From: Gonatopus flavifemur
Lineage: Eukaryota; Arthropoda; Insecta; Hymenoptera; Dryinidae
Reading direction: 5' to 3'
Assembly (NCBI GenBank): GCA_018340375.1
Contig: JAFFJZ010000020.1
Location: forward strand, 2,852,001 to 2,916,000
Length of the DNA: 64,000 nucleotides
In this document: piece by piece, positions 2,115 through 64,000 of the stretch
How positions within the stretch are numbered: position 1 is the stretch's first letter
How the letters are laid out: each line of letters opens with the position of its first letter
Program-made: the position numbers and the translations under genes
The notes under the pieces: generated by a model
What the model was told of the DNA's origin: nothing
The model's database searches: none
What the model saw: the letters and a program-made list of their open reading frames with translations, nothing else

Positions 2115-2269
2115 ATTAGGAATTAGTTTGCAATTCTTGCTGGGATTTTGAAGAACGAAAACATCACATAGGATAGGCACGGAATAAATTTGGAGAAGAC
2201 AGTAGAAAGGAAGCAAGAAAAATGAATTCAACCCAGTAAACATAGATCTCCCAAATGCCTCTAAAGCTG

Positions 2270-3975
2270 TAATTTCATGGGGCGTCGAGCATCAAGCGTC
2301 AACATTGGAAGGAAAGAGAGGTCACACAGTTCTTCTCTTTCCTTCTAATGTTGACGCTTGATGCTCGACGCCCCATGAAATTACATCTTAAGATGTAATT
2401 TCATGGGGCGTCGAGCATCAAGCGTCAACATTAGAAGGAAAGAGAAGAACTGTGTGATCTCTCTTTCTTTCTAATGTTGACGCTTGATGCTCGACGCCCC
2501 ATGAAATCACAGCTTTAAAGATGTAATTTCATGGGGCGTCGAGCATCAAGCGTCAACATTAGAAGGAAAGAGAAAAACTGTGTGACCTCTCTTTCTTTCT
2601 AATGTTGACGCTTGATGCTCGACGCCCCATGAAATTACAGCTTAAAGCTGCCAATTCATGGAGCGTCGAGCATCGAGCGTCCAATTATTTCCCCAGATTT
2701 TTTCGACGCTCAATTGCGAAATGCCACAGGTACCTTTTCATAGAGCGTCAGGCTGGCCTCCCATGGACCGGAATTCGTTCCGGCGGAATGAAAATTGAAC
2801 CAATGCACAATTCTTTATAGATTTCTGATAGAACGCTCTAAAAGAAATTGTGAAAGCGATTGGTTGACAGTCATTCCGCCGGAACGAATTCCGGTCCATG
2901 GGAGGCCAGCCTCAAGCATCGAGCATCAAAATAGTAAATTCCAATTCCAACATTGACACACAACCTCATATGCCAGAAAGGAATTAATTTATATGCTCAT
3001 TTGATGCATTGCTGTTACTAAGCAATAAAGTAAATTACTACTAAAAAGGAATTAATTTAACCAGGACCAGGACTAAAACCCGGTATTTATGGAAATCAAT
3101 TTTAACGTTGGAAATGATGAAAGTTGGAAGAAACCAACTTCATAAATTTCAACGCTGGAACGTCGAAAAAATCTGGAGAAATAATTGGACGCTCGATGCT
3201 TGACGCCCCATGAATTGGCAGCTTAAAACAGTTTGAAATTTTCAGGGATGAATCTTTGAAGGTTTATCTGAAAAATCTACATTTTTTTTTGCTTTTCTAC
3301 AAAATTCAAAATTCCTGCTCTGCACAGACCTAGATAAAACTTCAAAGATTCATCCCTGGAAATTGCAGACTTTTTTGGGCGTTCAGTTTCGAGTATTTTG
3401 GTCGGAAAAATGCCACCAGATGGAGCCACCTATGCGAGCGTATCCGGGGTTGGGAATGCATTATACTTAGTATAAAGATGTAATTTCATGGGGCGTCGAG
3501 CATCAAGCGTCAACATTAGAAGGAAAGAGAAGAACTGTGTGACCTCTCTTTCTTTCTAATGTTGACGCTTGATGCTCGACGCCCCATGAAATTACATCTT
3601 AAAGATGTAATTTCATGGGGCGTCGAGCATCAAGCGTCAACATTAGAAAGAAAGAGAGGTCACACAGTTCTTCTCTTTCCTTCTAATGTTGACGCTTGAT
3701 GCTCGACGCCCCATGAAATTACATCTTAAGCTGTAATTTCATGGGGCGTCGAGCATCGAGCGTCAACATTAGAAAGAAAGAGAGGTCACACAGTGATTCT
3801 CTTTACTTCTAATGTTGACGCTTGATGCTCGACGCCCCATGAAATTACATCTTTAAAGCTGTAATTTCATTGGGCGTCGAGCATCAAGCGTCAACATTAG
3901 AAAGAAAGAGAGATCACACAGTTCTTCTCTTTCCTTCTAATGTTGACGCTTGATGCTCGACGCCCCATGAAATTA
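2270..3975. repeat. Array of seven 114-bp hairpins with TTAA linkers
   Basis: Seven near-perfect hairpins, each 114 bp, lie at 2270-2383, 2396-2509, 2524-2637, 3481-3593, 3608-3721, 3734-3847 and 3862-3975. Each arm begins TAATTTCATGGGGCGTCGAG and the arms meet at a short centre around TCACACAG. Linkers of 12-15 bp contain TTAA in nearly every case, as in CATCTTAAGATG. A longer related palindrome, about 2641-3223, lies in the middle; its arms begin CCAATTCATGGAGCGTCG and are also bordered by TTAA. It contains a nested inverted repeat with GGCCTCCCATGGACCGGAAT arms (about 2750-2910). The stretch 3228-3475 holds another inverted repeat based on GGGATGAATCTTTGAAG. The pattern suits a TTAA-targeting MITE inserted repeatedly at its own flanking TTAA. 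Confidence 0.85.
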
Positions 3976-4199
3976 CATCTTAATATTTCGACTTCTATAC
4001 AAGTATTATACATGTATAATACAGTGTATATTACTGATAAGGTTTTATACGAGTTTAATACATCATAGTGGCGCCCTTAGGAACCAAATATGATTGGTCC
4101 ATCGAAAAATCCATCAGAAATTACCAACAATTACCTTTTATATGTATAATATATGTATTATACGTCAGAAACCTCACTCGACATGTCAAATTCCCAACC

Positions 4200-37463: not shown

Positions 37464-38340
37464 TAGTCACATTCAAGCAAAATTATATTACATTCAGCTG
37501 ATTAGAATATAACGAAGGCATACCCCTAAAAAATTCTAAAAATATCCGTTTTCAGTATCGATTACACTTTTTGAAGAAATATATTGTATTTCTGATTCGA
37601 ATGATACAAAATATATGTGAATAGGTAAGTGTATCCTACTATCGCAGGTTATGTAATTATGAGATTTGTGAAATGCAGAAGTTTAAATCGATTGTTGAAA
37701 CAAATTCGAAATTGAATGTGAAGAAACATTGTATATTATAAATGTTAATATTACACACTGAACATTTTTGGACAATACATGGTATACGCATCATTTGATT
37801 TTCCGATATTTATGCGTGCATTTGTTGGAATAAATGATTCAACCTTTAACAACATGAAGAGGAAATCCACAGTTTTCGATACTTTATTGGAATAGCTTTG
37901 ACAAAATTATCTTTCAAAAAATAGTATATTTTGTATCCTTTACTTATCAACTGTAATTATACGTTAAATAATGTAATACATAACATAACATCCATATAAT
38001 AAAGTGATTTTCAAATAACTCCAAAAATAGTAGCAAAAGACATGGAAGTATTTCACATAACTACTGTCAATACATTTGTATTTCAAATAGTATTATATCT
38101 TATGGATTCATTCGAAATCTGTCTATTCATATTCATTTGTATGCGGTGTTTGAGCCTTTGCATCGATTTTCATCAAGGATAAACTTCATTAATGGCATGT
38201 GACGAATATAAAAGACCCAATAGATATTTTCCGCATTTTGACCATTTTTGCCAATTTTCATCATTTTAACTGGTTTAAACCACTCTTATCCAGTGGCTAG
38301 GACAAAAGTGATAAAAGCCGAATTTTTTCCAACCCTGTTA

Positions 38341-39622
38341 TTAGGTGTACAAATAAGTTTCCGCGGTTTTTTATAAAAAATTAAGAATTTATTGTAAAGG
38401 AAAAGTACATTACGTTTTATTTAAAGTATTTTCCATCATTTGCCACTACTTTTCCCCATCTTTCTGGCAACATTCGGATACCCCGTCGAAAAAACTCTTC
38501 ATCTTTTGACGCTATCCACAAATCTACCCAATTTTTGGTGTCTTCATATGATGTGAAGCGCTGCTCAGACAGACCATGTGCCATCGACCGGAACAGGTGA
38601 TAATCAGAAGGGGCTAAGTCTGGTGAATACGGCGGGTGGGGTAAAACTTCCCAGTTGAGTGTTTCCAAGTATGTTTTTACCGGCGCCGCAACATGTGGAC
38701 GAGCATTATCGTGTAAAAGAATAATTTTGTCGTGTCTGGAGTAGTAATGGGCGCGTTTTTCCTTAAGTGCCCGACTCAATCTCATCAATTGTGTTCGGTA
38801 GAGAGCTCCAGTAATGGTTTCGCTTGGTTTCAGCAATTCATAATACACGACACCAAGCTGATCCCACCAAATACACAGCATGAGTTTTTTTCCATGAATA
38901 TTCGGCTTAGCTGTCGATGTTGATGGTTCGCCGGGCTTAACCCATGACTTTCTCTTCTTTGGATTATCGTAGTGAATCCATTTTTCGTCACCAGTGACTA
39001 TACGATGCAAAAACTCTTTTTTATTCCTGGCAAGCAGCATTTCACTCATGCATAATCGGCGTTCAACGTCTCTCGGCTTTAGTTCATATGGAACCCAATT
39101 TCCTTGTTTTTGAATCATTCCTAACGATTTTAAACGATGTGAAATTGCTTGTTGAGTCACTTGTAGAGTAAGTGCAAGTTCTTTTGCGTTTGGGACGAAT
39201 CTTCCTCCAATAGTACTTCTAATTCCATGTCTTCGTACACTTTCGGCCTTCCACTGCGTTCTTTGTCTTTAACGTCAAACTCACCGTTCTTAAACTTTTG
39301 AAACCATTCCTGACAACTTCTCTCACTTAAAGCAGCTTCACCATATGCTTCTAGAAGCAATCGATGCGCCTCAGCTGCAGATTTTTTCACATTAAAGAAG
39401 TAAATCAAAAGTTCCCGCAAATGATGCTTATTCGGAATAAAACTTGACATTTTTGCACGAAAAAAATTACGTGATGCTGATACGGAATCACTAGTACTTC
39501 AAGGTTATGGTGTTGCCAGATGACTAAACTTGGGATATTACGTTTTACATCTGACAATTTCTCCATAACCTTCTGGTGGGGCCATCTTTTGACAAACCGC
39601 GGAAACTTATTTGTACACCTAA
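38341..39622 (-). mobile_element. Full-length mariner element, copy 1
   Basis: This 1,282-bp Tc1/mariner transposon has 29-bp perfect terminal inverted repeats beginning TTAGGTGTACAAATAAGTTT. It is flanked by TA at 38339-38340 and 39623-39624, the expected target duplication. Length, ends and encoded transposase all match mariner. The perfect repeats suggest recent insertion, although the transposase carries a frameshift. Confidence 0.96.
38417..39450 (-). pseudogene. Mariner transposase with one frameshift
   Basis: Cut-and-paste transposase of about 345 residues. The N-terminal helix-turn-helix region (39450 down to about 39187) contains EAHRLLLEAYGEAALSERSC and RSGRPKVYED. After a single-base shift in the CAAAAGAAC run near 39178-39186, the frame continues to 38417. 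The catalytic motifs are intact: VTGDEKWIHYDN, LLHDNARPH and YSPDLAPSDY. There are exactly 34 residues between the second and third Asp, the DD34D signature of mariner. The C-terminal RGIRMLPERWGKVVANDG is also conserved. The shift makes this copy non-functional unless it is a sequencing error. Confidence 0.93.
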
Positions 39623-42611: not shown

Positions 42612-45180
42612 ACTGCAGGCCTCTCAAAAGTACGGAGGAGAAAAACAGAACGATACGGAAACCAGAGCCTCTGATCTATACAATAAGCAGAAAATCAGGA
42701 GGATACTCGTTGATTTAGACGTGAAATGAGGGATTTTAAAATAAGATGATTCTCGACGAAAGTCGATGCCACACGCGTATCAAGCGTCTACAGAGGAGAC
42801 GTGGTCGGAGCAATGAAACGACGGAGGGAGGAGAACGGAGAAGAACGTTGGCCACGCCCCAATGTCTGGACACAGAGAAGAGATGTTAGTAGTGGAAAAG
42901 TCGTAGGAAAGTAGTTCACCAGTAGTTGGTGAGATTCTTACACTTTTTCCTCGATCTGACGGTTCTATGAATATTGCATGGGGTATATCTATAATCTGTA
43001 GGTATCTAAGAGATGTTGAAAGATGTAAAAATGCTCACACGAAAATTTCGAATCAATCAGAACGACTTAACTCGAGAAAGTACTGCTCAAGTCGTGGACA
43101 AGTAGGTAAAAAGTAGTTGGTGAGATTCTCACACTTTTTCCTCGATCTGACGGTTCTATGAATATTCCATGGGGTATATCTATAATCTGTAGGTATCTGG
43201 GGGATGTTGAAACATGTTACGATGCGCACACGAAAATTCCAAATCAATCAGAACGACATAACTCGAGAAAGTACTGCTCAAGTCGTGGAAAAGTAGTTCA
43301 CAAGTAGTTGGTGAGATTCTCACACTTTTTCCTCGATCTGACGGTTCTATGAATTTTCCATGGGGTATATCTATGATGTATGAGTATCTGGGGGATGTTG
43401 AATCATGTAACAATGTTTACACGAAAATTCCGAATCAATCAGATCGACATAACTCGAGAAAGTACTGCTCAAGTCAAGATATACCCCATGCAATATTCAT
43501 AGAACCGTCAGATCGGGGAAAAATGTGAGAATCTCACCAACTACTTTGCACCTGCGTTTCCACGACTTGAGCAGTACTTTCTCGAGTTATGTCGTTCTGA
43601 TTGATTTGGAATTTTCGTGTGAGCATTTTTACATGTTTCAACATCTCTTAGATACCTACAGATTATAGATATACCCCATGCAATATTCGTAGAACCGTCA
43701 GATCGAGGAAAAAGTGTGAGAATCTGACCAACTACTTGTGAACTACTTTTCCACGACTTACACATTATCTTTCTCATTTATATGGTTTTGATTCTCTCGA
43801 AACCTCCGTCAATATTCATTCATATGATCCAGAATCTCACACGTAATTCTACAGCATAGACATACCCCATAGAATTCCCATGGAAGTGTTAGATCAATGG
43901 AAAAAGGTGCGAATGCCACCAACAACTTATTTACTACTTTCCCGCTACTTGAGCAGTACTTCTTCGAGTTATGTCGTTCTGATTGATTTGGAATTTTCGT
44001 GTAAACATTGTTACATGATTCGACATCTCCCAGATACTCATACATCATAGATATACCCCATGGAAAATTCATAGAACCGTCAGATCGAGGAAAAAGTGTG
44101 AGAATCTCACCAACTACTTGTGAACTACTTTTCCACGACTTGAGCAGTACTTTCTCGAGTTATGTCGTTCGGATTGATTTGGAATTTTCGTGTGAGCATC
44201 GTAACATGTTTCAACATCCCCCAGATACCTACAGATTATAGATATACCCCATGGAATATTCATAGAACCGTCAGATCGAGGAAAAAGTGTGAGAATCTCA
44301 CCAACTACTTTTTACCTACTTGTCCACGACTTGAGCAGTACTTTCTCGAGTTAAGTCGTTCTGATTGATTCAAAATTTTCGTGTGAGCATTTTTACATCT
44401 TTCAACATCTCTCAGATACCTACAGATTATAGATATACCCCATGCAATATTCATAGAACCGTCAGATCGAGGAAAAAGTGTGAGAATCTCACCAACTACT
44501 TTGTACCTACTTTTCCACGACTTGAGCAGTACTTTCACGAGTTAAGTCGTTCTGATTGATTCGAAATTTTCGTGTAAGCATTGTTACATGATTCAACATC
44601 TCTTAGATACCTACAGATCATAGAGATACCCCATGCAATATTCATAGAACCGTCAGATCGAGGAAAAAGTGTGAGAATCTCACCAACTACTTTTTACCTA
44701 CTTTTCCACGACTTGAGCAGTACTTTCACGAGTTAAGTCGTTCTGATTGATTCGAAATTTTCGTGTAAGCATTGTTACATGATTCAACATCTCTTAGATA
44801 CCTACAGATCATAGAGATACCCCATGCAATATTCATAGAACCGTCAGATCGAGGAAAAAGTGTGAGAATCTCACCAACTACTTGTGAACTACTTTCCTAC
44901 GACTTCTTCACCACTAACATCTCTCCTCTGTGTCCAGACATTGGGGCTTGGCCAACGTTTTTCTCCATTCTTCTTCCTCCATCGTTTCATTGCTCCGACC
45001 ACGCCTCCTCTGTAGACGCTTGATACGCGTGTGGTATCGATTTTCGTCGAAAATGATCTTATTTTGAAATCGCTCATTTCACATCCAAATCAACGAGTAT
45101 CATCCTGATTTTGTGCTCATTGTATAGATCAGAGTCTCTAGTTTCCGTATCGTTTTTTATTTTTCCTCTTACGTACTTTT
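42612..45180. mobile_element. 2.5-kb foldback with 191-bp tandem units
   Basis: The outer arms (about 42612-42905 and 44890-45180) are inverse copies carrying ACACGCGTATCAAGCGTCTA and CAATGTCTGGACACAGAG. Inside, the left arm has three direct 191-bp units, marked by TCGATCTGACGGTTCTATGA at 42951, 43142 and 43333. The right arm has eight inverted units, marked near 43507, 43697, 43880 (diverged), 44079, 44270, 44459, 44655 and 44849. The arms meet at about 43475-43485. The layout recalls Foldback elements: long inverted ends filled with tandem repeats and no transposase. Repeated frames here are artefacts. From 45181 to about 45480 I see no gene. Confidence 0.78.
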
Positions 45181-50842: not shown

Positions 50843-52141
50843 TCAGGTTGGCAACTAAGTAATTGTGGATTTCACTCATAGATGGTGTTAGTTGAATTTT
50901 TAGGTTTGCAGACGTAGTACAAATGTAAAACACATCTTGTTATTTGATAGTTGGCAATTCAGCTGTCAATCAGTAACAAAATTGTTTGATCGCTTGCGTA
51001 GTTTTCGTTTGGCGTTCGTTGAGAAATGGAAAATCAAAAGGAACATTTTCGTCATATTTTTCTTTTTTATTTCCGCAAAGGGAAAAACGCATCGCAAGCT
51101 CATAAAAAGTTATATGCTGTTTATGGTGACGAAGCCTTAAAAGAACGGCAGTGTCAAAATTGGTTTGCCAAATTTCGTTCTGGTGATTTTTCACTCAAAG
51201 ATGAAAAACGCTCTGGTCGTCCAGTTGACGTTGATGACGCCCTAATGAAAGCAATAATCGATTCGGATCGTCACAGTACAACACGTGAGATTGCAGAGAA
51301 ACTTCATGTATCACATACATGCATTGAAAATCACTTAAAACAACTTGGCTATGTTCAAAAACTCGATACATCGGTTCCTCACGAACTGAAAGGAACGCAT
51401 TCAACGCAACGCATTAACATCTGCAATTTGCTCAAGAAACGTAATGAAAATGATCCATTTTTAAAACGACTGATAACTGGCGATGGAAAATGGGTTGTGT
51501 ACAACAATATCAAGCGGAAAAGATTGTGGAGCAGGTCAGGTGAACTAACTCGAACAACAGCAAAAGCTGATATATTTATGAAAAGAAGGTTTTGTTATCA
51601 GTTTGATGGGATTACAAAGGAATTGTCTACTTTGAACTCTGACCACCCAACCGAACGATCAATTCTGATGTCTACATTGAACAACTAACGAAATTAAACA
51701 ATGCAGTTAAAGAAAAGCGGCCCGAATTGACAAATCGAAAAGGTGTTGTATTCCATCATGACAATGCAAGGCCACACACATCTTTGGTCACTCGGCAAAA
51801 ATTATTGGAGCTTGGTTGGGGTTGGTTTGGGATCTTTTGCCACATCCACCATATAGTCCTGACCTTGCACCATCTGATTACTTTTTGTTTCGATCTTTCC
51901 AAAACTCCTTGAATGGTAAAAATTTCAGTAATGATGATGATGTCAAATCGTACCTGATTCAGTTTTTTGCTAATAAAAACCAGAAGTTTCATGAACGTGG
52001 GATTATGATGCTGCCTGAAAGATGGCAAAAGGTCATCGATCAAAATGGGCAATACATTACAGAATAAAGTTATTCAGTTCCATGAAAAAAGTGGCTTTGA
52101 TTTTCTAACAAGAATCCGCAATTACTTAGTTGCAAACCCAA
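50843..52141 (+). mobile_element. Mariner element, copy 2, inside the gypsy gag
   Basis: This 1,299-bp element has diverged inverted ends (TCAGGTTGGCAACTAAGTAA against TTGGGTTTGCAACTAAGTAA, inverse) and TA on both sides (50841-50842 and 52142-52143). Removing it joins the gag reading EEKHL-IDRRLW. It is a different mariner family from the copy at 38341, as both the ends and the transposase differ. Confidence 0.93.
51026..52067 (+). pseudogene. Mariner transposase, multiple frameshifts
   Basis: Transposase of the mariner superfamily, broken into pieces. The first (51026-51688) starts MENQKEHFRHIFLFYFRKGK and contains RQCQNWFAKFRSGDFSLKDE and ITGDGKWVVYNN, where the usual E after the first catalytic Asp is G. 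The second piece (about 51727-51825) carries HHDNARPHTSLVTR. The third (51816-52067) carries PPYSPDLAPSDYFLF and GIMMLPERWQKVIDQNGQ. At least two frameshifts (about 51590-51690 and 51825) and some missing residues in the middle make it inactive. Relatives of this family are common in insects and are known for horizontal spread. Confidence 0.92.
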
Positions 52142-53344
52142 TAGATCGACGACTATGGATCGTGTAGGTGGAGCTGCGGCGCCCCCTAACACATCACGCA
52201 ACTCAGAGACGGATCGTGCGACCAACGAGAATTTACAGGAAAATCGAGACACGAGGGGATTAGTTTCCCGCATGGTGGAAGAGAATAGAAGGAGAGATCA
52301 AGCTTTGGAACGCTTGGTGGAGAGGGTAACCATTGATCGCCGAGAAAATGGATCTGAACCACAAGCAGAACGACTACGAAACGTGGAACCACGTGACGGC
52401 AATTGTGATAATTTCCACGTAATGCCTGATTTGAACGCCCATATCGATACGTACAGCGGCGAAGTCGATGAAATAAAAGCACAAGAATGGCTCCGATCTA
52501 TCGAATCAAGAAAAAACATTGCACCGATGACCAGATTCTTTTACCTTGGAAACTGCACGAACACATTTAACGGGAGCAGCAAAACAATGGTATTTACGTG
52601 TCGGTAATACTATCAACAGCTGGGCTGAGTTCAAAACCGCGTTCCGCTACACGTTTCAACCTCCAGGGAGCACGACAGCGAGATGGTTAGAGATGGATAC
52701 CCGAACACAACAAAAAGACGAAAGCATTAGTGCATATTTCCAAGCGAAAGCTAAGTTGTGTTACGACTTGTATTCATCTGACCAGGAAACTAAGGAGCAG
52801 ATATTAATCGGTCTTTGGTCAAAAGATACGTGTACTGCAGTGGAAGCTAGAGACCAGGAGACTCTCAACGACTGATTACACGATTTGATAAAGTGTGAAC
52901 GAACGGAGCAGCAGCGACTGGAAAGAATCAGAGTCAAAGAAGGCAAAACTCCGCAAAGTCATACACCGACGCGCTATGTCAAGGAAAATGATTGATCGAC
53001 GGATAAGACAGATGAATCGGAAGCTCGACACTGACAGGATCGTGCACGTGATGAAGCGAACAGGAATGAAGGAAAAAAGTGTTATGTGTGCAGTCAATAC
53101 GGACACTTGGCAAAAGATTGCGAAAAAAGTTCAAAAGGAATAAAGTGTTTCAAGTGTGGAGAGTTTGGCTCCACCCAACGACAATGTACGAAAGCGGAGG
53201 CGACGCAAGCATCTACGCCACGGACGATGCAACCTATTTACCGACAGAAGGACAACGCTGCGAGTAAATATATCAAAAGAATTCAAATAAACGGAATTGA
53301 GTGCGAGGGACTTATAGACGTCGGGAGTACCGAATGTACAGTGG

Positions 53345-54100
53345 ATGTTCCGTCGTGCGCCTGCAGACGGGGACGACTACATACAGCGTATACCTCTCCT
53401 CCAGCGGGATCACATGACCTAATTGCAAATTAGGGGAAATGGTCATCGACACGAGATGATCGCTGATAATCGATCGAGTCAGTGCGGCAAGAAGACTCCT
53501 CGCGTGAACCCACGCTTCTTATTCTAATACTTCTTACACGTGTCGCATCACTATTCTCTTTCTCTCCGTATCGATCTGACTAGTATACTTCGCGTATCCT
53601 CTCCCGTCGTTATACAAAAGTATTCAGATATGAAAAACATTTAGTGCTCACGGTGGTGGCTGTTTTCTCTACCTTCATGAAGGCATCGTTCCTCATTTCG
53701 CTCTCTCCGTGGGGTCTTCTTCTCTTCGACATTCTCTTCGTCGATGACTGTCTGCTTCTCGTGGAATCTACGGTGCACCGCAACGCTGCTGTATGCATGT
53801 ATGAGTGAGTCGAATGATTCTCTGGCCAGTGAATGGTAATATTAACCGCATAATGTTCTTTAATTATTGATTGCTTGAATTCAGAGGAAGTGACACTTCT
53901 GAACTAGCATAATTTCCTTTTGTATTTGATTACGAGTTCAATTATATGTTGTTTGAATTTAATTACTCTCTTTCTCCTACTGCATGAGTCTACCTAGAGC
54001 GAGACAGAATTTATTCCATCTCATACAGTCCGCTAACGCTTCCGAAATCCCTTCTTTTTGCAATACAAGTTCAATATTCAATTTTCTCTCCATTTCTCCA
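53345..54100. other. Unrecognised 750-bp insertion in the protease region
   Basis: The protease reading is interrupted after ECTV and resumes near 54108. The intervening DNA is CT-rich in places (53540-53600 and 53690-53770) and has no coding frame I recognise. It might be a solo LTR of another element, but I could not find a target duplication. Confidence 0.4.
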
Positions 54101-54829
54101 TGTCAGCATGGCGAAGGCCGAAACAGTGGAAGCAACACGAGCCCTGTTATCCGGATTCACCATCGAACCTAATGTGGTCTCATTGAAAAGTTTTAGACCA
54201 CAAGAATTTCGAGTGACGTCACCAGGGACTGTGACATCAACGGTTGAAGTGGACGGTGTCAAAGTGTACGATATACCAGTACGAGTAGTACCAGATGATT
54301 CACAGCAGGTGGACGTAATCATTGGTCAAACATTCACAGAGGCTCCACATGTCAAGTATACCAAGTGTGGGGACAAATTCACCTTCGAAGAACTTAACTC
54401 GACCGAGTTAGAGGAGGAAACCTCCAATTCGGCTGAGGATACGGACAACAACGGAACCACGATATTGCCACCGTAGTCAATTAATTTCGTACAAATGGAG
54501 AGTAACTCTGGAGAGGTTACAATACCTCTTACCAACTTGAGCACGCAGGAAGAAAAGGTCGACTCATCAATGTGCTCGGTCAAAATGAAGTGGAAGCTGG
54601 CAGCCGCGAGCTGGCGGCCGCAGGGGTTATGTTTTGGCTGGGACTGTACCTGAACAAAACGATCAAACTATTTGGATATTTCCTACATAAATACATGCGG
54701 AAATAAAATAATGGTGATATCTAAAGACATGAATTTGTAGTATTTGAGACGAGGAATTCGAAAACATAAGATTTGTCTCGATACGAGGTCGTTTTCATAG
54801 AATTTTTTGCAGAAAAACGAGGGGTTATG

Positions 54830-56430
54830 TATTGGTTCAAACGAATTTCATCACCTACTGATGAGACGGCGTTCGATTCAGAGGATGAGAAGCATCAATT
54901 CTTATAGGATTTTGTCTGGGGAATCCAATGGTATAAGTTTCATTTTGTTACGCGGCCGTTTTCGTGGGTTTTTTGTCGATAAGAAGCGACATTTCTAACA
55001 ATGTTGACATGATTTCGGTGAATTTTGTTATTTCGTGACAGGACGTCGTCCGACCTAGGGATGGAAATCCATCAATTCTTATGGGAAATTGTCCAGGGAA
55101 TCCAACGGTGTATGACTCTTTCCGTTACGCGGCCGTTTTCATGCAGTTTTCGTCGAAAGAAAGCGGGACTTTTGTCAATTTGCCCACAATTTGTATGAAT
55201 TTCGTTATTTAATGACAGGTCGACGTGCGATTATTGGAATAAAATCTATGAATTCTTATGAGGAATTGTCCACAGAATCCAACGATATACGGCTCAATCC
55301 GTTACGCCGCCGTGTTCTTGAATTTTCACGCGAAAACGCATTGGCTGGTAATTGATGGAATAATCCAGATTATGCGAATTCCTCCAGCAGCCGCGGGGTT
55401 GCCGTTCGATTGGAAGGATGAGATGCATCAATTCTTATAGCAAATTGTCCAAGGAATCCAACGGTGTATGACTCATTCCGTTACGCGGCCGTGTTCATGC
55501 AGTTTTCATCGAAAGAAAGCGAGACTTTTGTCAATTTCCCCACAATTTTCATGAATTTCGTTGTTTAATGACAGGTCGACGTCCGATTATTGGAATAAAA
55601 TCTATGAATTCTTATGAGGAATTGTCCACAGAATCCGACGATATACGGCTCAATCCATTACGCCGCCGTGTTCTTGAATTTTCACGCGAAAACGCATTGG
55701 CTGGTAATTGACGGAATAATCCAGATTATGCGAATTCCTCCAGCGGCCGCGGGGTTGTCGTTCGATTGGAATCATGAGATGCATCAATTCTCATAGCAAA
55801 TTGTCCAAGGAATCCCACGGTGTATGACTCTTTCCGTTACGCGGCCGTTTTCATGCAGTTTTCGTCGAAAGAAAGCGAGACTTTTGTCAATTTGCCCACA
55901 ATTTGTATGAATTTCGTTATTTAATGACAGGTCGACGTCCGATTATTGGAATAAAATCTATGAATTCTTATGAGGAATTGTCCACAGAATCCGACGATAT
56001 ACGGCTCACTTCGTTACGCCGCCGTGTTCTTGAATTTTCACGCGAAAACGCATTGGCTGGTAATTGATGGAACAATCCAGATTATGCGAATTCCTCCAGC
56101 AGCCGCGGGGTTGTCGTTCGATTGGAAGGATGAGATGCATCAATTCTTATAGCAAATTGCCCAAGGAATCCAACGGTGTATGACTCATTCCGTTACGCGG
56201 CCGTGTTCATGCAGTTTTCATCGAAAGAAAGCGAGACTTTTGTCAATTTCCCCACAATTTTCATGAATTTCGTTATTTAATGACAGGTCGACGTTCGATT
56301 ATTGGAATAAAATCTATGAATTCTTATGAGGAATTCTCCACAGAATCCGATGATATACGGCTCAATCCGGCACGCCGCCGTGTCCTTGAATTTTCACGCG
56401 AAAACGCATTGGCTGGTGATTGATTGAATA
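54830..56430. repeat. 356-bp tandem array with 178-bp substructure
   Basis: Strong units begin near 55216, 55572, 55928 and 56284, a period of 356 bp, marked by GACAGGTCGACGTCCGATTA and GAATTGTCCACAGAATCC. Each unit contains two related halves: one has GTATGACTCATTCCGTTACG, the other ATACGGCTCAATCCGTTACG. The array is therefore a dimer of about 178 bp. More diverged halves extend left to about 54830. Repeated 60-residue open frames in it (55258, 55614 and 55970) come from the period and are not genes. Confidence 0.88.
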
Positions 56431-56486
56431 ATCATTACATATGCGAATTCTTCCATAGGCTGCTAGCACTCTCTTACTTCTTCCCA

Positions 56487-56712
56487 CACTGTAAAAAATT
56501 CCTTTGTACATTCACAAAAAACGTTTGGAAGTTTTTTACATAACTTTTTCTTCGTTGGAGTTCAGAAAAAACTTTGCAGAAAATCAAAAACTTTTGTCAA
56601 ACAACAAAAATTTCGAAGTTCTCCAAACTTTTTTTCTGGAATCCAACGAAAAAAAAGTTATGTAAAAAACCTTTTTTGTAAATCTACACAGGGATTCTCT
56701 ACTGTGTGATTT
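56487..56712. mobile_element. CACTGTAAAAAATTCC foldback, copy A
   Basis: The left end CACTGTAAAAAATTCCTTTG is present; the right end is degraded. The arms include GTTTGGAAGTTTTTTACATA and its inverse. It is a sister of the copies at 57066 and 57393. Confidence 0.6.
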
Positions 56713-57065
56713 CCATTCCTGTATGAGTGAAAATGTCATTCGAAATATGTTTCTTCCATTACATCGATCACGACGAACGTTTCGCTATCGGATGTGTATG
56801 GAATCACAATCCGTATCTTTTGTTTTCATTATCCCCAAATTTTCTAGGTATCCAATTGCCATCGCCTTGGACCTCGAAATCGTCCAAAATGGACTCGTTA
56901 TGTAACCGAAAATCTACCTGAACATTCCAATACCTGATATTTGCGAGATCATCACCTGGAAAATTTGTTGTTGTGACAAGAAATGTATACACGCATTAGA
57001 TTTCGTAATTTGTTCTAATATTTGGAATCGTAGATGTTGAAATAACTTTCAAAATTCATTCATCA

Positions 57066-57292
57066 CACTGTAAAAAATTTCTTTGTAGATTTACAAACGA
57101 AGTTCGGAAGTTTTTTACATAACTTTTCTTCCGTTGAATTTCAGAAAAAAGTTTGCAGAAAATCAAGAAATTTTGTCAACCAACAAAAATTTTCGATGTT
57201 CTCCGAACTTTTTTTTGGAATCCAACGAAAAAAAGTTATGTAAAAAACTTCCAAACGTTTTTTGTAAATTCACAAAGAAATTTTTTACAGTG
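57066..57292. mobile_element. CACTGTAAAAAATTTC foldback, copy B
   Basis: The ends are CACTGTAAAAAATTTCTTTG and the inverse AAATTTTTTACAGTG. The arms of about 100 bp include AGTTTTTTACATAACTTTTC. No protein. It shares its terminal bases with the larger element at 46267. Confidence 0.78.
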
Positions 57293-57392
57293 TTATATAA
57301 CCAAAAAAGTCTGAGAAAGCCGGATGTAATTCTTCGAAATTCGATGCGTTCAGGTATTTACGATAGCAATCAACAATTTATTTTCTTCCATG

Positions 57393-57621
57393 CTCTGTGA
57401 AAAATGTATTTGTGGATTTGCAAACAAACTTTGGAAGTTTTCTACATGAACATTTTTTCTGGTAGATTCCGAAATAAAGTTTGGAGAGAATCAAAAATTA
57501 TTGTTATTTGACAAAAATTTTCAATTTCTTCCAAACTTTATTCTGGAATCAACCAGAAATCATGTTTACGTAAGAAACTTCCAAACTTTTCTTTTAAATC
57601 CACAAAGATATCTTTTACAGT
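57393..57621. mobile_element. CACTGTAAAAAA-related foldback, copy C
   Basis: The left end is CTGTGAAAAATGTATTTGTG and the right end CTTTTACAGTG. The arms are clearly diverged relatives of copies A and B (TTTGGAAGTTTTCTACATGA). Confidence 0.65.
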
Positions 57622-59055
57622 GTGCACCATTATGAGAATCTAAGATATTTTCCCATATTTGGTGATTGAAACGATACGACAGTTACCATGTGAGTACGTT
57701 CCATTTTCCAAACAAACAATTTTTCCGAAATATCAAATTTGGACTGTGTGACGACGAAGATGAAGTGTTAGAAAACCATTCCTGGAAATTACAGATTTTT
57801 CCATGAACTCACTTCCGATTAATTTGGTACCAGAAAAGCGTGCTCGGATGGTAACACACCTATTCTCTCAAACCCAGTAGCTTATTCATTTTCCGTTGCG
57901 ATTCATTTTTCTCCGTTGTTGCTTTTCTGTTTCTTTGATTTCATGTTCATGCATATGAGTCTGTTCGTAGCTTCGTTGGTATCCCTTCTCCTCTCTCAAA
58001 ATCGCCAATCGGAAGGTCAACATTGCGTCCACACTGTTGCCATCATTGTTTACTCCAGATTCTCAATTGTCTTAGTTTTCAATTCTATCAATATCATCAG
58101 GTCAACTACTGCAAATCTTCGTGTTACATTTGAACTGAAGACCGCCTGTGCAGAAGTCAAATTCAGCTGGTTCATTTCTCTTACACGTTTTTTCGTTTCA
58201 AACGGTTATAAAGTGTTTGAATCCTATTTTAGTTCATTTTTATTAGTAGAGTTGAAAGTATTCATCTCTCGGAAAAGATTTCCTTTACTTTGTTTTTTGT
58301 TCCACCGATTATTATCTATCATTTTCAAGGAATCGCGTTCCGAAATTTCAATTTACATGTATTTTAGTTTTCTACGTTACTTAGGTTAGTGCATTTTTAA
58401 TGTGTTCGTTGTAAAGTAACTCGCATAATCAAAGCACGGTTGGTGTTATTCAGAGAAAGTCGTTCATCGAATGAATCTTTCAAAAATTCTGAAACAGCGG
58501 ATATATTTTATTTACTAAGGTTACAGCTTTCGTCTTTTTATGAGTTTTTCATAACTTTTGTTCATTTTCCGTTAATAGTTGAAACGGTTTCTCTTTATCA
58601 CGGAAGCTCAGATTCAGTTTTCGTTCAATTAGTCATCAATACACATTTCACCTGCTGAGAAATATCTCATCTTCATTTGAATTACATGTACCTTAGAGTT
58701 TATCATAATTCTTCATTACACATTCATAATCATATGAATATTTATTTTTTACGTGGATATATTCAACATATATTTCGTTTGTTTCTTTAGTTCCTCCTTC
58801 ATTTTACTAATAAGCAATTATTACCATCAAGAATCAGGCTTTGGAAACCTTTAATTTTATGTATTGTAGATTTATATGCTTGTCATATAATGAAATGCAT
58901 TTTATGCATGGAAGCGTATGTTGTTCTGTTCAAAGTGAGGCGTTTTATCCCTTGTTCACAAATTTCGTTCATCTTATTTTATTTCCATAACTGAAGACGT
59001 TTTTCGTTCGTATCGTTTGATTTCTTTTCTTTCTTTCGTTTTACTTGTCATAAAC
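57622..59055. other. Presumed leader of the DDE/Ulp1 element
   Basis: About 1.4 kb between the MITE cluster and the ATG of the large frame. A piece of the GATACCAG-family right half (TGCTCGGATGGTAACACACC) lies near 57838. The frame at 57916-58389 is T-rich and looks accidental. I found no convincing promoter. Confidence 0.4.
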
Positions 59056-62000
59056 ATGAAAATTACTCATGAAGCGATAGCTGAAGCTATCCTGGAGATT
59101 TATCCCAATGTTGAACCAGCAACAGCATGTCAAGATTTATGTCGACAATCTTTCAGCAAGACTTGTGGCACATGGAAAGTCCTGTGCAGTCGGATATTAA
59201 AAGGGTCATCAGAAAAAACTGTACTGAAACATATGTTGAAGTGTTTCGCCATGTTTTCGAGAAATAGTTTACTCATTCAAAACCTCGCAGAAGGAAAATA
59301 CAAAGCGAACATCACTAAGTTAGTGCTCGAAAATTGTAATCCTGAAAGTGAAGATTCAATGATCAGTATAAATACGAATTGTGAATTGAGTAAGAATGGA
59401 GATCTATATACAGCAGAAAATACTGATGATTCACAGAAAATAATTTCAGAAATGTCATCGCTGAACATTGATGAAAATGATAATAAGCTTTTGCGAAATG
59501 TGGAAATGTGTTCCAATAAAGATATATGTTATTGTAGTCGTGAAGATAACATTTCCGATGAATTATCTACAAACTACGATCCTGAGTGTAATATCCAAGC
59601 ATTGCAACGTGATATAGATCAAAGAACACATCAACAACAGAGCTCCGCAGACTGTGAGAATGATCTCAGATTGACAATCCCCGACAAGAAATCCGGAAAT
59701 AGTGTATACTTTACTCCATCTTATGATGAAAATCAGAATGAAGTCCCCGAAGAACCATCATCTCCTACCAAAAGTTGTATGTCTTTGCTCTCCTCTTCTA
59801 CAACGTATATTGATGACTGCAATCCTCTTGCAATTCAACAAGAAGTAGCATCATCCATACTCCCTGATGACGATTGGAATATACCAGATTTAACATCTGC
59901 GAGTCTCGAAAACGCACGCGAATATGTTGTTGATCTTGTTCCTCAATCTTGTCAAATTTCTAGAAATGGAAAAGTTTTTGAAGTAACCACGTATCCTCTG
60001 AAGCCTTGTATTTCTTTGTCATCTTCTACCATAAGTTGTGTAGAAGAATTCACTCCTTCGGTCTCTGAAAATGACGTACAGTCATCTTGTTCATTCAATA
60101 GTGATGGGAATGAATCTTTTGAGGAACACGATGGAATTAGAGATGAAAAAGACTTATCTCGCATTTCTGATCAAAGCGACGCAAGTGATGAAGAAAAAAA
60201 AAATGATATTTACAGGAATTCGAAAACCTTGAATAGAGAATTTTCTGATGATGAATTGAAAGTACAAATAATGGGATTTGAACTGGATGCAAAATTAATT
60301 ATTCCTCGCGAATTTTGGAAAAAATATTGGGGTAAAAGTAATGCTAAGGGCCGTGTACTTTTCTTGAGGTCATGGTATGAAGATTTCAACTATTATTTCG
60401 AACAAAGTTATCCAATTTGTGTACTGTCATTCAAGTGGCATAAATGCTATGACAACAAAAGTGACAGACAGCGTTATGTGACTATTCAAGCAAAATGTAA
60501 AAATTCCACATGCACAACATTTAGGTTTATCAGTATTGATCGAATATATGAACCGTTCTGTGATGTGCCGATGCTCGTATTTATAAGCTCAGAATTATGC
60601 CACCTTAAGAAAGAAAATCATCGCAGATTCGTGAGGAGGGAGACACGAGAAAAAGAGAAAATGTTGATGAAAGGACGTGCACCGACAATTCATGCACAAC
60701 AGAATCTTGCAGAAACATCCAAATTATTCGCACAACAGTTACAATATGGTAACCTGAATCACGCCCCAAGTAGCATGATCTATCAAAAAATTGCTAACGA
60801 AGAGAAGATATGTGGAAATTTGGATAAGAATGTAGATATTGCTTTGATGGAATTATCTATAAAGTTTCGAGAATCATGGCCTGGACAGTATCGTCCAGGT
60901 TATATACAAGAAAGTTCAACAAATCCTGTGCGCATCGTTCTTTTCACAGAAATCATTATCAAGTATCTATTGACCCTCAAATCCCAATATATCAATTGTT
61001 ACTTTGATAGTACTGGTTCAGTTATCGCAAGAGTTCCAAACATTGTATCCAAAAGAGAAGTTCCTAGTGTTCCACTTAATAAAAGAAAAAATCCAATTTT
61101 TTATTATGCATTGGTTTTACCCGGCAGCAAAACTTATGGACCACTCCCTGTTGCAGAGTTTATTTCCGAGATTCATGATGTAGCAGCAATATCAGCATTC
61201 TTACTCAGATTTAATGCCAGTGTGAAACGTCACACAGATAAACTTCTTATAAATAAAATTGAAGTAGATTTTAGCCTGGCATTAATACAATCATGTTTGT
61301 TGGCGTTTAACACAATGAGTTTATCTGAATACTTGAAATTAACGTTTCAAAGCGCAGAAGGAAACGATTTCGAATTTTTCATGAAGAACTTGACAATCAT
61401 TCACATTTGCTCTACTCACTTATTACGTACAGTGTTTCGTAAAATTAAAACTCTTACAAACAACAAAAGCATACGATCTACGATCGGTGCTATGATCAGT
61501 AAATTTATACACTCTGAAAATTTGGAATCAGCTGCACGTATCATGATGGATTTGGTTTGTATTTTTGGTATCAGAACGAAGACACGGAATCAACAAAAAA
61601 TTTTACGTGATTTACCAACGATAGAGTTACCCACATTCAGCAGTGACGATGAAGAGGAATATGAAAAAAATGAAGAGATAGAGAACTGGGACAATGAAAC
61701 AGAAAATCGTAATGCTAATGATCAAATTCCAAAATTATCCAATCCTTCAACATCCAAAAATGTGCGCCATAATTCACCATATTATCAGTATTTTGGTGGA
61801 ATATATGTAAGCTTATTAGATCGAACTGTACATGCTCATCGTCATATTAAAATATCACGTAATCAGCAATTTGGTTTCAAACATAAAAAAACGTCAAAGC
61901 AGGGAAAACCACAGGGACTGAAATACTATGGTACCAGAAAACTTGTAATCCGTAGCGTAAGCGCATTGTGCGTAAGCGCACAAAATTGTGTACTGAAGAA

Positions 62001-63703
62001 ATCAAACATTCTTGGAAGAGAAAAGTAAACAATTCCAACAGACAGAAGAACACAAAAATTAAAAGGAACGTTAACTGTATTAATCAGACGTACATAACGG
62101 GGAATTTGCGTTTTTATAAATATAAAGTTCACACTTTGCGTAAATCTCTAGCTTCATCCACCATGGACATGAGGAATGAACCTGAGATAAAGTTGACTTC
62201 ATTCAAAAATCCATATTACTGTCAACCTTTTCTGGATTACTTCATCGAATACATCGCACCCTATTTTGCCTTATGGTCCGCTTTGGTGATATCTCGGATG
62301 AATTTGTATAGGGATAGCAATGCGAGCGTTGAGAATTTTTTCAAGATATTGAAGATGGATATTTTGAAAAGACAAAAACATTTATCTGTACTAGAATTCA
62401 TAAGCATCAATGAATCTCTTTTGGAAGGACGGTTGAAAATGAGACAAACCGATTTAACAACAGAACGGCAAAAACGTAATTTGTCAAGAAAATGCGACGT
62501 TCCTGAATTAGCTGAAGAAAAGTGGGTCGATAAAAAACGACAAAGACCCCTTAAGGTTAACAAATTTTTTGTTCATAATAAACGTAAAGTTGCGAGTGCA
62601 AATACTGATAGTCACGTAAATAAAAAAATAAAAACTCCTGAGAGGGAATATTTCACACAATTATCACCGCAAAATGATGGAAATCCATCCATATGTATGG
62701 AAACCAATGAGCAATATACTCGGAGTCCATCACTATCGTCACAAATCCTGGAAGAAAAAGATATCGGGAATGAAAACAGAGAATACAAATCACCGTGGCA
62801 AGATGTAATTGACTACCCACAAGAATGGGAAACAGAGAATATACATGTTTTAGATTTGATCATCGATCGGGACGCCTTGAGAACACTACTTCCAGACAAA
62901 GAGGTTGAAGATAATATAGTGGATGGGTTTTTATCTATAATAAATTATAAACATAGTTCAGAAGAAATTTTGTGTTTTGATACTAAATTTACGGTTTGGT
63001 TATTGAATACAAACAAAGTGTCTATCGGTTTCATAAAGTGGGCACATACAGTGCAAGCTTGGACTTACGATGTGTGGCTGATACCGATGTGTTACAATCG
63101 GCACTGGACATTGATTTGTATTGATTTCCGTCATAAATATTTTGTTTATATTGATTCCATGCATGGAAATCCCCCAAAAACATTGCAGCAACAACTATGC
63201 AAGTTCATCGAAACAATATTACAACAAAAAAATGAAGTATTAGATTGGAAAAATTGGACGTGGTGTCAACCGAAAGATATCCCACATCAAGGAGGAACTG
63301 TTGACTGTGGCATTCACCTCTTGATATGGAGTTACAGAATATTGACGGGAGAACGTTTTAAATTCAATGCTGGAGATGTCATAAGGATAAGGAAGTGGAT
63401 AATGAAAACAATGATTGAGGGGAAAAATCTAAGCGAATCTCGGTCTAAAGCGTTCTCCATAAAAATGGATTCAGATGCGAGTATGTTACAAACGAAAATG
63501 AAAACACTGAAAAAAACATCGAAACTTTCATTGATAACTAATGGAATTCGGATTAATAACACGGATGAATATTGCACCTCGTTATTGGGGCTGATAAGGA
63601 ATGGAATATGAGATGGACTTTACCTGAAAATGCTGAATACATAATTTCTCGAACGAGTTTTTCCGTCCTGGAAAATGGAGATCTCACTACGATTTTTAAA
63701 TAA
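59056..63703 (+). pseudogene. DDE-transposase/Ulp1 (C48) fusion frame, two frameshifts
   Basis: A frame of about 1,550 residues starting at MKITHEAIAEAILEIYPNVE. Residues 100-420 are acidic and Ser/Asn-rich. A conserved-looking core follows: QIMGFELDAKLIIPREFWKK, then a transposase-like region with YFDSTGSV (Asp at 61006), NKIEVDFSLALIQ (Asp at 61267), HICSTHLLRTVFRKI (a C-x2-H pair) and NASVENFFKILK (Glu at 62331), which I read as a DDE triad like that of MULE-type enzymes. The C-terminal Ulp1/SENP protease has YNRHWTLICIDF (His 63102), YIDSMH (Asp 63153), HQGGTVDCG (Gln 63288, Cys 63306), so all active-site residues remain. Two lesions break it: about five surplus bases at 61951-61960, beside the repeated GCGTAAGCGCA, and a missing G in the run at 63587-63590. 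After the second, the frame continues to TAA at 63701. Transposase family assignment is uncertain; the protease is clear. Confidence 0.78.
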
Positions 63704-63739
63704 AAATCCAGAGGACAAAGGTGCATACCAACCAATGAA

Positions 63740-63890
63740 AGACCAGTCTTCAGACAACGAAATTAACCCAACTCATGGGGGGATTCACGAAAACCTGCCC
63801 TCATCCTGCCAAAAACCACATGAAAACGGCCACGTAACAGAATACGTCATACACCATCGCATTCCTGGAAAGATTTGCTAACAAGAGTTA
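63740..63890 (-). repeat. Inverted copy of the left-array repeat
   Basis: On the minus strand this reads TAGCAAAT, then GGAATGCGATGGTGTATGAC, then GTTACGTGGCCGTTTTCATG, then AATTTCGTTG. The plus-strand units at 55435-55570 give the same landmarks in the same order and spacing, with substitutions. It begins about 40 bp after the repaired stop codon of the DDE/Ulp1 frame. Confidence 0.8.
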
Positions 63891-63903
63891 TATCATGTGT
63901 TAC

Positions 63904-64000
63904 ACTGTAAAAAATTTCTGTATGAAATTGAATAGAAAAGTATGTGAAGCAATTAACACATACAATTTCTTTTGAATTTTCAAAGAAATAATTTATTAAA
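63904..64000 (+). mobile_element. CACTGTAAAAAATTTCTG element, cut by window edge
   Basis: The left end matches the foldback copies at 57066 and 46267. The right part lies outside the window. Confidence 0.5.

What the first reader, a model, noticed from the sequence alone, without database searches (positions are those of the whole stretch)
54720..63900. Large transposon uniting a DDE-type transposase with an Ulp1/SENP SUMO protease
A single frame joins a transposase-like region (Asp at 61006, Asp at 61267, C-x2-H at 61408-61419, Glu at 62331) to a C48 protease whose His, Asp, Gln and Cys are all present. Facing subterminal repeat arrays enclose the frame. Ulp1-like domains captured by DNA transposons are known (for example plant Kaonashi MULEs), but I do not recognise this insect arrangement. 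A transposon that could remove SUMO or SUMO-like tags might counter host silencing or regulate its own transposase.
Basis: partly seen in the sequence, partly recalled or inferred. Interest (0 to 1): 0.88.

Follow-up and report, generated by a model that had tools for sequence, protein, structure and literature searches.

The report
Transposon carrying its own SUMO-protease domain
This is a real "jumping gene" in what is probably an insect genome, whose cut-and-paste enzyme is fused to a domain that looks able to remove SUMO tags from proteins; similar fusions are known in other transposons, and the test of whether the protease part is kept by selection points to yes but rests on few copies.

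Summary
The core observation holds. Two overlapping + strand frames, 59017-62028 and 61968-63611, encode a Zn finger, D-D-CxxH-E and a Ulp1/SENP-type C48 protease with H-D-Q-C intact. They are in different frames in this copy, so "single frame" is wrong here, but a divergent copy (C271) reads both in one 1510-aa frame. The element starts at 54585; its right end (about 68051) and real right array (65424-67743) lie outside the window. Sixteen gene-less copies with the same terminal repeats and inverted arrays have exact 8-10 bp target duplications, so these ends move. In 22 of 30 transposase loci a C48 match follows on the same strand. Between two divergent copies dN/dS is 0.24 for C48 and 0.21 for the transposase; recent pairs scatter up to about 1. 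Models give an RNase H core and a SENP fold. Best label: a Rehavkus-like/foldback, MULE-type transposon with a C-terminal Ulp1 domain. Ulp1 fused to transposases is already published (Ginger1; hydra, lancelet and plant Mutators), so this is a new variant of a known kind. Protease activity, target and role are untested.

The parts
54585..64000 (+). Part of the transposon that lies in the window; it continues to about window coordinate 68051 (C111:2920051), about 13.5 kb in all
   Evidence: Homology with the C43 copy starts at 54585; the inverted match 54585-56463 vs 68051-66174 is 96.4%; terminal repeats ATGAAGTGG... at both ends
54585..54660 (+). Left terminal inverted repeat end; 45 of 76 positions shared with the divergent C323 subfamily
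   Evidence: shuffled control mean 19, maximum 31 of 76
54893..56455 (+). Left tandem array, 356-bp higher-order unit of two ~177-bp halves
   Evidence: TRF; weaker similarity to the array reaches back to about 54728
56486..57620 (.). Nested hairpin-like inverted repeats (CACTGTAAAAAA... type), probably inserted small elements; also partly present in the two gene-less copies read
59017..62028 (+). ORF1: N-terminal part, Zn finger and first part of the transposase core (D, D, CxxH)
   Evidence: family conservation
60419..60603 (+). Zinc-finger ligands Cys 60419, Cys 60496, Cys 60511, His 60601 (WRKY/FLYWCH-like)
61006..61008 (+). First catalytic Asp (D-[AS]-T-G)
   Evidence: invariant in the 10 rows; at the end of the first RNase H strand
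61267..61269 (+). Second catalytic Asp (DFS)
   Evidence: invariant in the 10 rows
61408..61419 (+). C-x2-H motif
   Evidence: nearly invariant (P0001 has a gap)
61968..63611 (+). ORF2: end of the transposase core (Glu) and C48 protease; different frame from ORF1
62331..62333 (+). Catalytic Glu (SNASVEN)
   Evidence: Glu in all 9 of 11 rows that reach the column; in helix 665-678 of the homologue's model
62856..63422 (+). C48 Ulp1/SENP domain (PF02902; PDB match to SENP5)
63102..63308 (+). C48 catalytic His 63102, Asp 63153, Gln 63288, Cys 63306
63741..63889 (-).

Best explanation
This is one copy of a foldback-type, Rehavkus-like cut-and-paste DNA transposon. Its single gene, in its unbroken form, makes one protein: a Zn-finger DNA-binding part, a DDE (RNase H-like) transposase and a C-terminal Ulp1/SENP-type protease. 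The transposase is inferred to bind the terminal repeats and possibly the satellite-like arrays, cut the element out and insert it with 8-10 bp duplications. Because the protease is part of the same polypeptide, it would be carried to the element's ends and remove SUMO, or a SUMO-like tag, there: from the transposase itself, or from host repair or silencing proteins. Shown here: the domains, fold class, arrays, ends, duplications and recurrence of the fusion; constraint on C48 is shown for one long comparison only. Inferred: DNA binding to the arrays, protease activity and its substrate. The window copy itself is frame-broken and probably cannot make the whole protein.
Against: No Pfam transposase model matched the window or C271 proteins. 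Foldseek found no PDB match at E <= 0.001 for the window's own core, its VIA scores are below 8, and for P0002 Foldseek's 50 listed matches are C48-like protease chains only, the transposases appearing in the VIA second look. 8 of 30 transposase loci have no C48 match nearby, and 15 of 37 C48 matches have no transposase. Selection: the partner in the low-ratio comparison, C323:26.5 Mb, has Ala at the catalytic Asp, and C323:49.81 Mb has Asn; recent pairs give 0.76 and 1.06 (C48) and 1.03 and 0.68 (transposase), while two short C48 pairs give 0.25 and 0.22 with wide intervals; window vs C363 gives 0.47-0.48. C111, C43 and C41 share a frame-shifting difference and C363 has stops, so no unbroken frame was seen in this exact subfamily. 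Substrate and activity are unknown.
Confidence: 0.7

Rival explanations
1. The protease serves the transposition reaction itself (trimming SUMO from the transposase or from repair factors at the cut), and has nothing to do with host silencing.
For: Bao et al. 2010 proposed a role in repair after or during transposition for Ulp1/OTU domains of transposons (PMC2836005, passages). C48 is fused in cis to the transposase, and in one long comparison is about as constrained.
Against: No experiment here; the silencing role is equally compatible with the fusion.
Confidence: 0.38
2. The protease counters SUMO-dependent silencing of the element (piRNA/heterochromatin type), a protein analogue of plant KIU/VANC elements.
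For: KIU-carrying Vandals with an Ulp1 domain escape silencing in plants (PMC13317346, passages). SUMO promotes Argonaute-directed silencing in C. elegans (PMC8131101, listing with start of abstract).
Against: No expression, chromatin or small-RNA data; the role of Ulp1 in these plant elements is itself called unknown in that review.
Confidence: 0.3
3. The C48 domain is a passive passenger captured from a host gene and now decaying.
For: C48 matches carry stops at several loci; the catalytic Asp is lost at 2 of 12 fully covered loci and the His at the partly covered C78; recent pairs have ratios near 1, with wide intervals.
Against: Ratio 0.24 between divergent copies; H, D, Q, C kept at 10 of 12 covered loci; recent pairs show the same relaxation in the transposase, as expected of dead copies; the fusion spans copies about 30-50% identical and metagenomic relatives about 30% identical; only 23% identity to the host-like Ulp1 at C323:28.86 Mb, so the capture is not recent.
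Confidence: 0.12
4. Two unrelated elements sit side by side: a satellite array and a gene that were never mobilised together.
For: 16 two-ended array copies show no transposase match; two were read and lack the gene.
Against: C111 and C43 share ends, arrays and gene at different sites with duplication-like flanks; divergent copies C271 and C323:49.49 Mb also have the gene between inverted arrays.
Confidence: 0.02

Closest known systems
Rehavkus transposons (e.g. Rehavkus-1_TC of Tribolium; PMC10218199, PMC6446971, passages seen)
   Same: Large element (9.5 kb there), short tandem arrays of a ~164-bp satellite in inverted termini, 9-bp duplications, one ORF, arthropod hosts
   Different: The table of PMC6446971 gives a PHD finger, and its main text has no Ulp1 or C48; window and C271 proteins have C48 and no PHD match. 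Relatives P0006 (C48+PHD) and P0007 (PHD+YqaJ with a C48-like end) bridge the two
Ginger1 and animal MuDR elements with Ulp1 (Bao et al. 2010, PMC2836005, abstract and passages)
   Same: C-terminal Ulp1 (or OTU, or Ulp1+PHD) fused to a DDE transposase in animals
   Different: Ginger1 has CCGG/CCGT-specific duplications and a Gypsy-type integrase; here 8-10 bp duplications, CxxH core and long inverted arrays.
Plant Kaonashi/KIU Vandals and grapevine CACTA/MULE with ULP1 (PMC13317346, PMC2528002, passages)
   Same: Mutator or CACTA transposons with a captured Ulp1 domain
   Different: KIU: non-TIR MULEs with Ulp1 in one of three genes; here TIRs and a fusion to the transposase
Drosophila foldback elements and Tetris (PMC4079207, passages)
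   Same: Inverted termini built of tandem repeats, 8-10 bp duplications, gene-less copies
   Different: Tetris lacks conserved ORFs; no Ulp1 in the passages seen
Cryptons with C48 (PMC3212892, passages)
   Same: C48/Ulp1 peptidase encoded by a mobile element
   Different: Tyrosine recombinase, not DDE; C48-bearing CryptonF and CryptonS elements are described for oomycetes in the passages seen

Membership tests
Ulp1/SENP (C48) protease | PF02902 match above the curated cut-off | tested here: met
   52.8 bits vs 20.7; C271 53.3 bits
Ulp1/SENP (C48) protease | His, Asp, Gln and Cys of the active site | tested here: met
   window H, D, Q, C; 10 of 12 covered genome loci; P0006 has Asn in the Asp column
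Ulp1/SENP (C48) protease | deSUMOylating activity | not testable with these tools
MULE (Mutator-like) superfamily | RNase H-like DDE core with CxxH between second D and E | tested here: met
   in the window D, D and CxxH are in ORF1, E in ORF2
MULE (Mutator-like) superfamily | 8-11 bp (mostly 9 bp) target-site duplications | tested here: met
   16 of 16 gene-less copies exact: five of 8 bp, ten of 9 bp, one of 10 bp; C323:49.49 Mb copy 9/9; C43 8/9, C111 7/8
MULE (Mutator-like) superfamily | match to a Pfam transposase model (diagnostic rather than defining) | tested here: not met
   no transposase family at E <= 1 for window or C271
MULE (Mutator-like) superfamily | WRKY-GCM1/FLYWCH-type Zn finger (recalled as common in MULEs) | tested here: inconclusive
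Rehavkus | PHD finger in the transposase | tested here: not met
   no PHD match in window or C271; present in relatives P0004, P0006, P0007
Rehavkus | minisatellite/satellite arrays in inverted termini | tested here: met
   vs PMC10218199
Rehavkus | transposase clusters with Repbase Rehavkus sequences | not testable with these tools
   no Repbase sequences available
Foldback elements | long inverted termini made of tandem repeats, with gene-less mobile copies | tested here: met
Ginger1 | CCGG/CCGT-specific duplications | tested here: not met
   8-10 bp duplications

The most novel reading that the evidence does not exclude
In a Rehavkus-like clade of animal transposons, a ubiquitin/SUMO-removing module (C48, sometimes with PHD; OTU in relative P0008) is a standard working part of the transposase. 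In this foldback lineage the DNA-binding transposase carries a SUMO protease to hundreds of satellite-like array units, stripping SUMO locally and so protecting both gene-bearing and gene-less copies from SUMO-dependent silencing or repair checkpoints.
Probability: 0.18. Interest if true: 0.75.

Novelty: new variant of a known kind. Interest (0 to 1): 0.4.

Why it matters
Ulp1 domains recur in unrelated mobile elements (Mutator, CACTA, Ginger, Crypton), which suggests that SUMO removal helps mobile DNA, but why is an open question. Here the domain is fused to the transposase, recurs across copies only about 30-50% identical, and belongs to a family with gene-less copies bearing exact duplications, so a protease-dead versus normal comparison on short terminal-repeat donors is directly testable. 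It also ties a SUMO protease to foldback satellite arrays.
Full report
What was checked. The window is part of contig C111 of a 636-Mb genome. They lie in two overlapping + strand frames, ORF1 59017-62028 and ORF2 61968-63611, not in one.

The protease. ORF2 matches PF02902 (Peptidase_C48) at E 6.3e-14, residues 327-478, and by sequence is closest to solved SENP5 (E 5e-12), SENP1 (1e-10) and SENP2 (9e-9). His, Asp, Gln and Cys are present in the window and in relatives P0001-P0003 and P0007; P0006 has Asn in the Asp column. In the same genome 12 loci cover all four positions: 10 keep H, D, Q and C (one of these with a stop in the aligned part), C323:26.5 Mb has Ala and C323:49.81 Mb Asn at the Asp; of the partly covered loci C78 has lost the His. 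The domain shares 23% identity with a host-like Ulp1 gene at C323:28.86 Mb over 194 columns, so capture is old.

True ends and arrays. Comparison with the C43 copy (98.5% over 12.2 kb) places the left end at 54585 and the right end at window coordinate about 68051, outside the window. The left array is 54893-56455; the right array, inverted, is 65424-67743. A search with one array unit gave 252 matches (40 of 273 candidates scored). A search with the left 300 bp gave 40 matches (40 of 368 candidates scored), which I paired into 19 two-ended elements and 2 single ends. Of the 19, only C111, C43 and C41 coincide with a transposase match, itself a capped list; the other 16 (3.9-10.7 kb) do not. 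Two of the 16 were read in full and have no similarity to the gene. All 16 have exact direct repeats of 8 (5), 9 (10) or 10 bp (1) next to the ends; 0 of 240 cross-pairings of their flanks match exactly at 8-10 bp or within one mismatch at 8 or 9 bp. C43 has 8 of 9 and C111 7 of 8. So the terminal repeats with their arrays are mobile without the gene, as in foldback elements.

Divergent copies. The same protein family occurs at 30 loci by my chaining of 50 matches (46 of 105 candidates scored); C41/C43 and perhaps C47/C55 are duplicate contigs. In 22 of 30 a C48 match follows on the same strand within 10 kb (20 at 0.85-1.73 kb, two at 6-7 kb); 8 of 30 have none; 15 of 37 C48 matches have no transposase near, among them the host-like Ulp1. 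At C271 both parts are read in one unbroken 1510-aa frame, 43% identical in the transposase, between inverted arrays of a 184-bp unit. At C323 49.485-49.497 Mb another subfamily has inverted ~184-bp arrays, about 82% identical to each other, a terminal repeat sharing 45 of 76 positions with the window's (shuffles: mean 19, maximum 31) and a perfect 9-bp duplication. The arrays of C271 and C323 are related (61-62% over 1.4 kb), window vs C323 weakly so.

Selection. Nei-Gojobori ratios. Long comparison, C271 vs the C323:26.5 Mb copy: transposase 0.205 (0.154-0.274, 423 codons), C48 0.238 (0.152-0.349, 278 codons). C271 C48 vs C323:49.49 Mb: 0.15 with dS 2.3, near saturation; four further pairings saturated. 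Window vs C363: transposase 0.48 (0.36-0.65), C48 0.47 (0.28-0.87). Recent pairs: C323:49.49 vs 49.81 Mb, C48 0.76 (0-1.44), transposase 1.03 (0.75-1.43); C392:5.0 vs C55, C48 1.06 (0.45-3.86), transposase 0.68 (0.47-1.00); C392:11.66 vs C323:49.59 Mb C48 0.25 (0.08-0.89); C392:11.66 vs C78 C48 0.22 (0-1.12). The pattern, low over the long comparison and mostly relaxed in recent ones for both domains, is what one expects if both were constrained in active lineages and inserted copies then decay. But it rests on one unsaturated long comparison, whose partner has lost the catalytic Asp, so the constraint on C48 is supported, not settled.

The frame break. Copies on C111, C43 and C41 share a short frame-shifting difference near 61.95-62.0 kb that the C363 relative lacks. 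C43 and C41 are nearly identical over 15.9 kb with identical left flanks at the terminal repeat and count as one insertion. The lesion therefore predates at least one transposition or duplication, and these copies were probably moved by protein made elsewhere (inference). An unbroken frame exists in the divergent C271 copy.

Relatives elsewhere. The protein searches gave P0001-P0003, P0004 and P0005-P0009. P0002, P0003 and P0006 carry PF02902; P0006 also a PHD finger; P0007 PHD and YqaJ, with a C48-like end that aligns to P0006's (E 3e-29); P0008 an OTU domain; P0004 a PHD finger and a C-terminal part I could not name. The sources are metagenomic, or in P0004's case a MAG protein, except Prorops nasuta. 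PHD is given as the finger type of Rehavkus (PMC6446971, passages), and Rehavkus-1_TC has 164-bp satellite arrays in inverted termini (PMC10218199, passages). The present family fits Rehavkus in arrays and duplications but lacks the PHD match, so I call it Rehavkus-like, not Rehavkus.

What is known. Bao et al. 2010 (PMC2836005, abstract and passages) describe Ginger1 transposases with C-terminal Ulp1, OTU or Ulp1+PHD, and state that Ulp1 occurs in Mutator transposons of hydra, lancelet and plants. Plant KIU Vandals (PMC13317346, passages), grapevine CACTA/MULE (PMC2528002, passages), Cryptons (PMC3212892, passages) and Utopia/NeSL retrotransposons (PMC4640811, passages) also carry it. So the fusion principle is known. 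What I did not see in the library is an arthropod foldback/Rehavkus-like element with it.

How it most likely works. Supported here by sequence and models: Zn finger, DDE core and SENP-type protease in one protein, and mobile inverted arrays. Inferred: the Zn finger binds terminal repeats and perhaps array units (extra binding sites in tandem terminal repeats are reported for Galileo in PMC4079207, passages); the DDE core cuts and joins; the tethered protease removes SUMO from the transposase, repair or silencing factors. SUMO promotes Argonaute-directed silencing in C. elegans (PMC8131101, listing only). That SUMO also acts in Drosophila piRNA silencing is recalled from general knowledge, with related papers seen only in a listing. 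I give the reaction role 0.38 and the anti-silencing role 0.3; nothing here separates them.

Noticed in passing
window 51026-52067 (+) and 38339-39429 (-): Mariner-like transposase ORFs, broken; the two stretches are related (about 59% in BLAST). The mariner name comes from reading the ORF, not from a database match.
   Followed up: no
window 52155-54584: Gypsy-like gag/protease remnant (by eye); the transposon's left end at 54585 lies just beside it, so it may have inserted into or next to this remnant.
   Followed up: no
window 56486-57620 and 63902-64000: Several nested hairpin sequences beginning CACTGTAAAAAA; some also lie inside the two gene-less copies read.
   Followed up: partly
window 42898-44905: A different 191-bp tandem array with copies in both orientations, no significant similarity to the element's arrays; it could be another foldback element.
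   Followed up: partly
window 2262-2681 and 3473-3983: 128-bp tandem arrays that match themselves on both strands.
   Followed up: partly
P0008 and P0009: Relatives of the transposase with an N-terminal OTU domain (P0008, PF02338) or what looks by eye like an OTU remnant (P0009, no Pfam match): another ubiquitin-type protease in the same transposase clade.
   Followed up: partly
P0004, residues about 900-1067: C-terminal part with an NTCPVDN motif that looks like another cysteine-protease-like domain; no confident Pfam match there.
   Followed up: no
G000:C359:15134725-15149029 (-): Cluster of four C48 matches without a listed transposase nearby; possibly host SENP genes or a domesticated copy.
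   Followed up: no
G000:C323:49.24-49.81 Mb: Four transposase loci of the family within 0.6 Mb.
   Followed up: no
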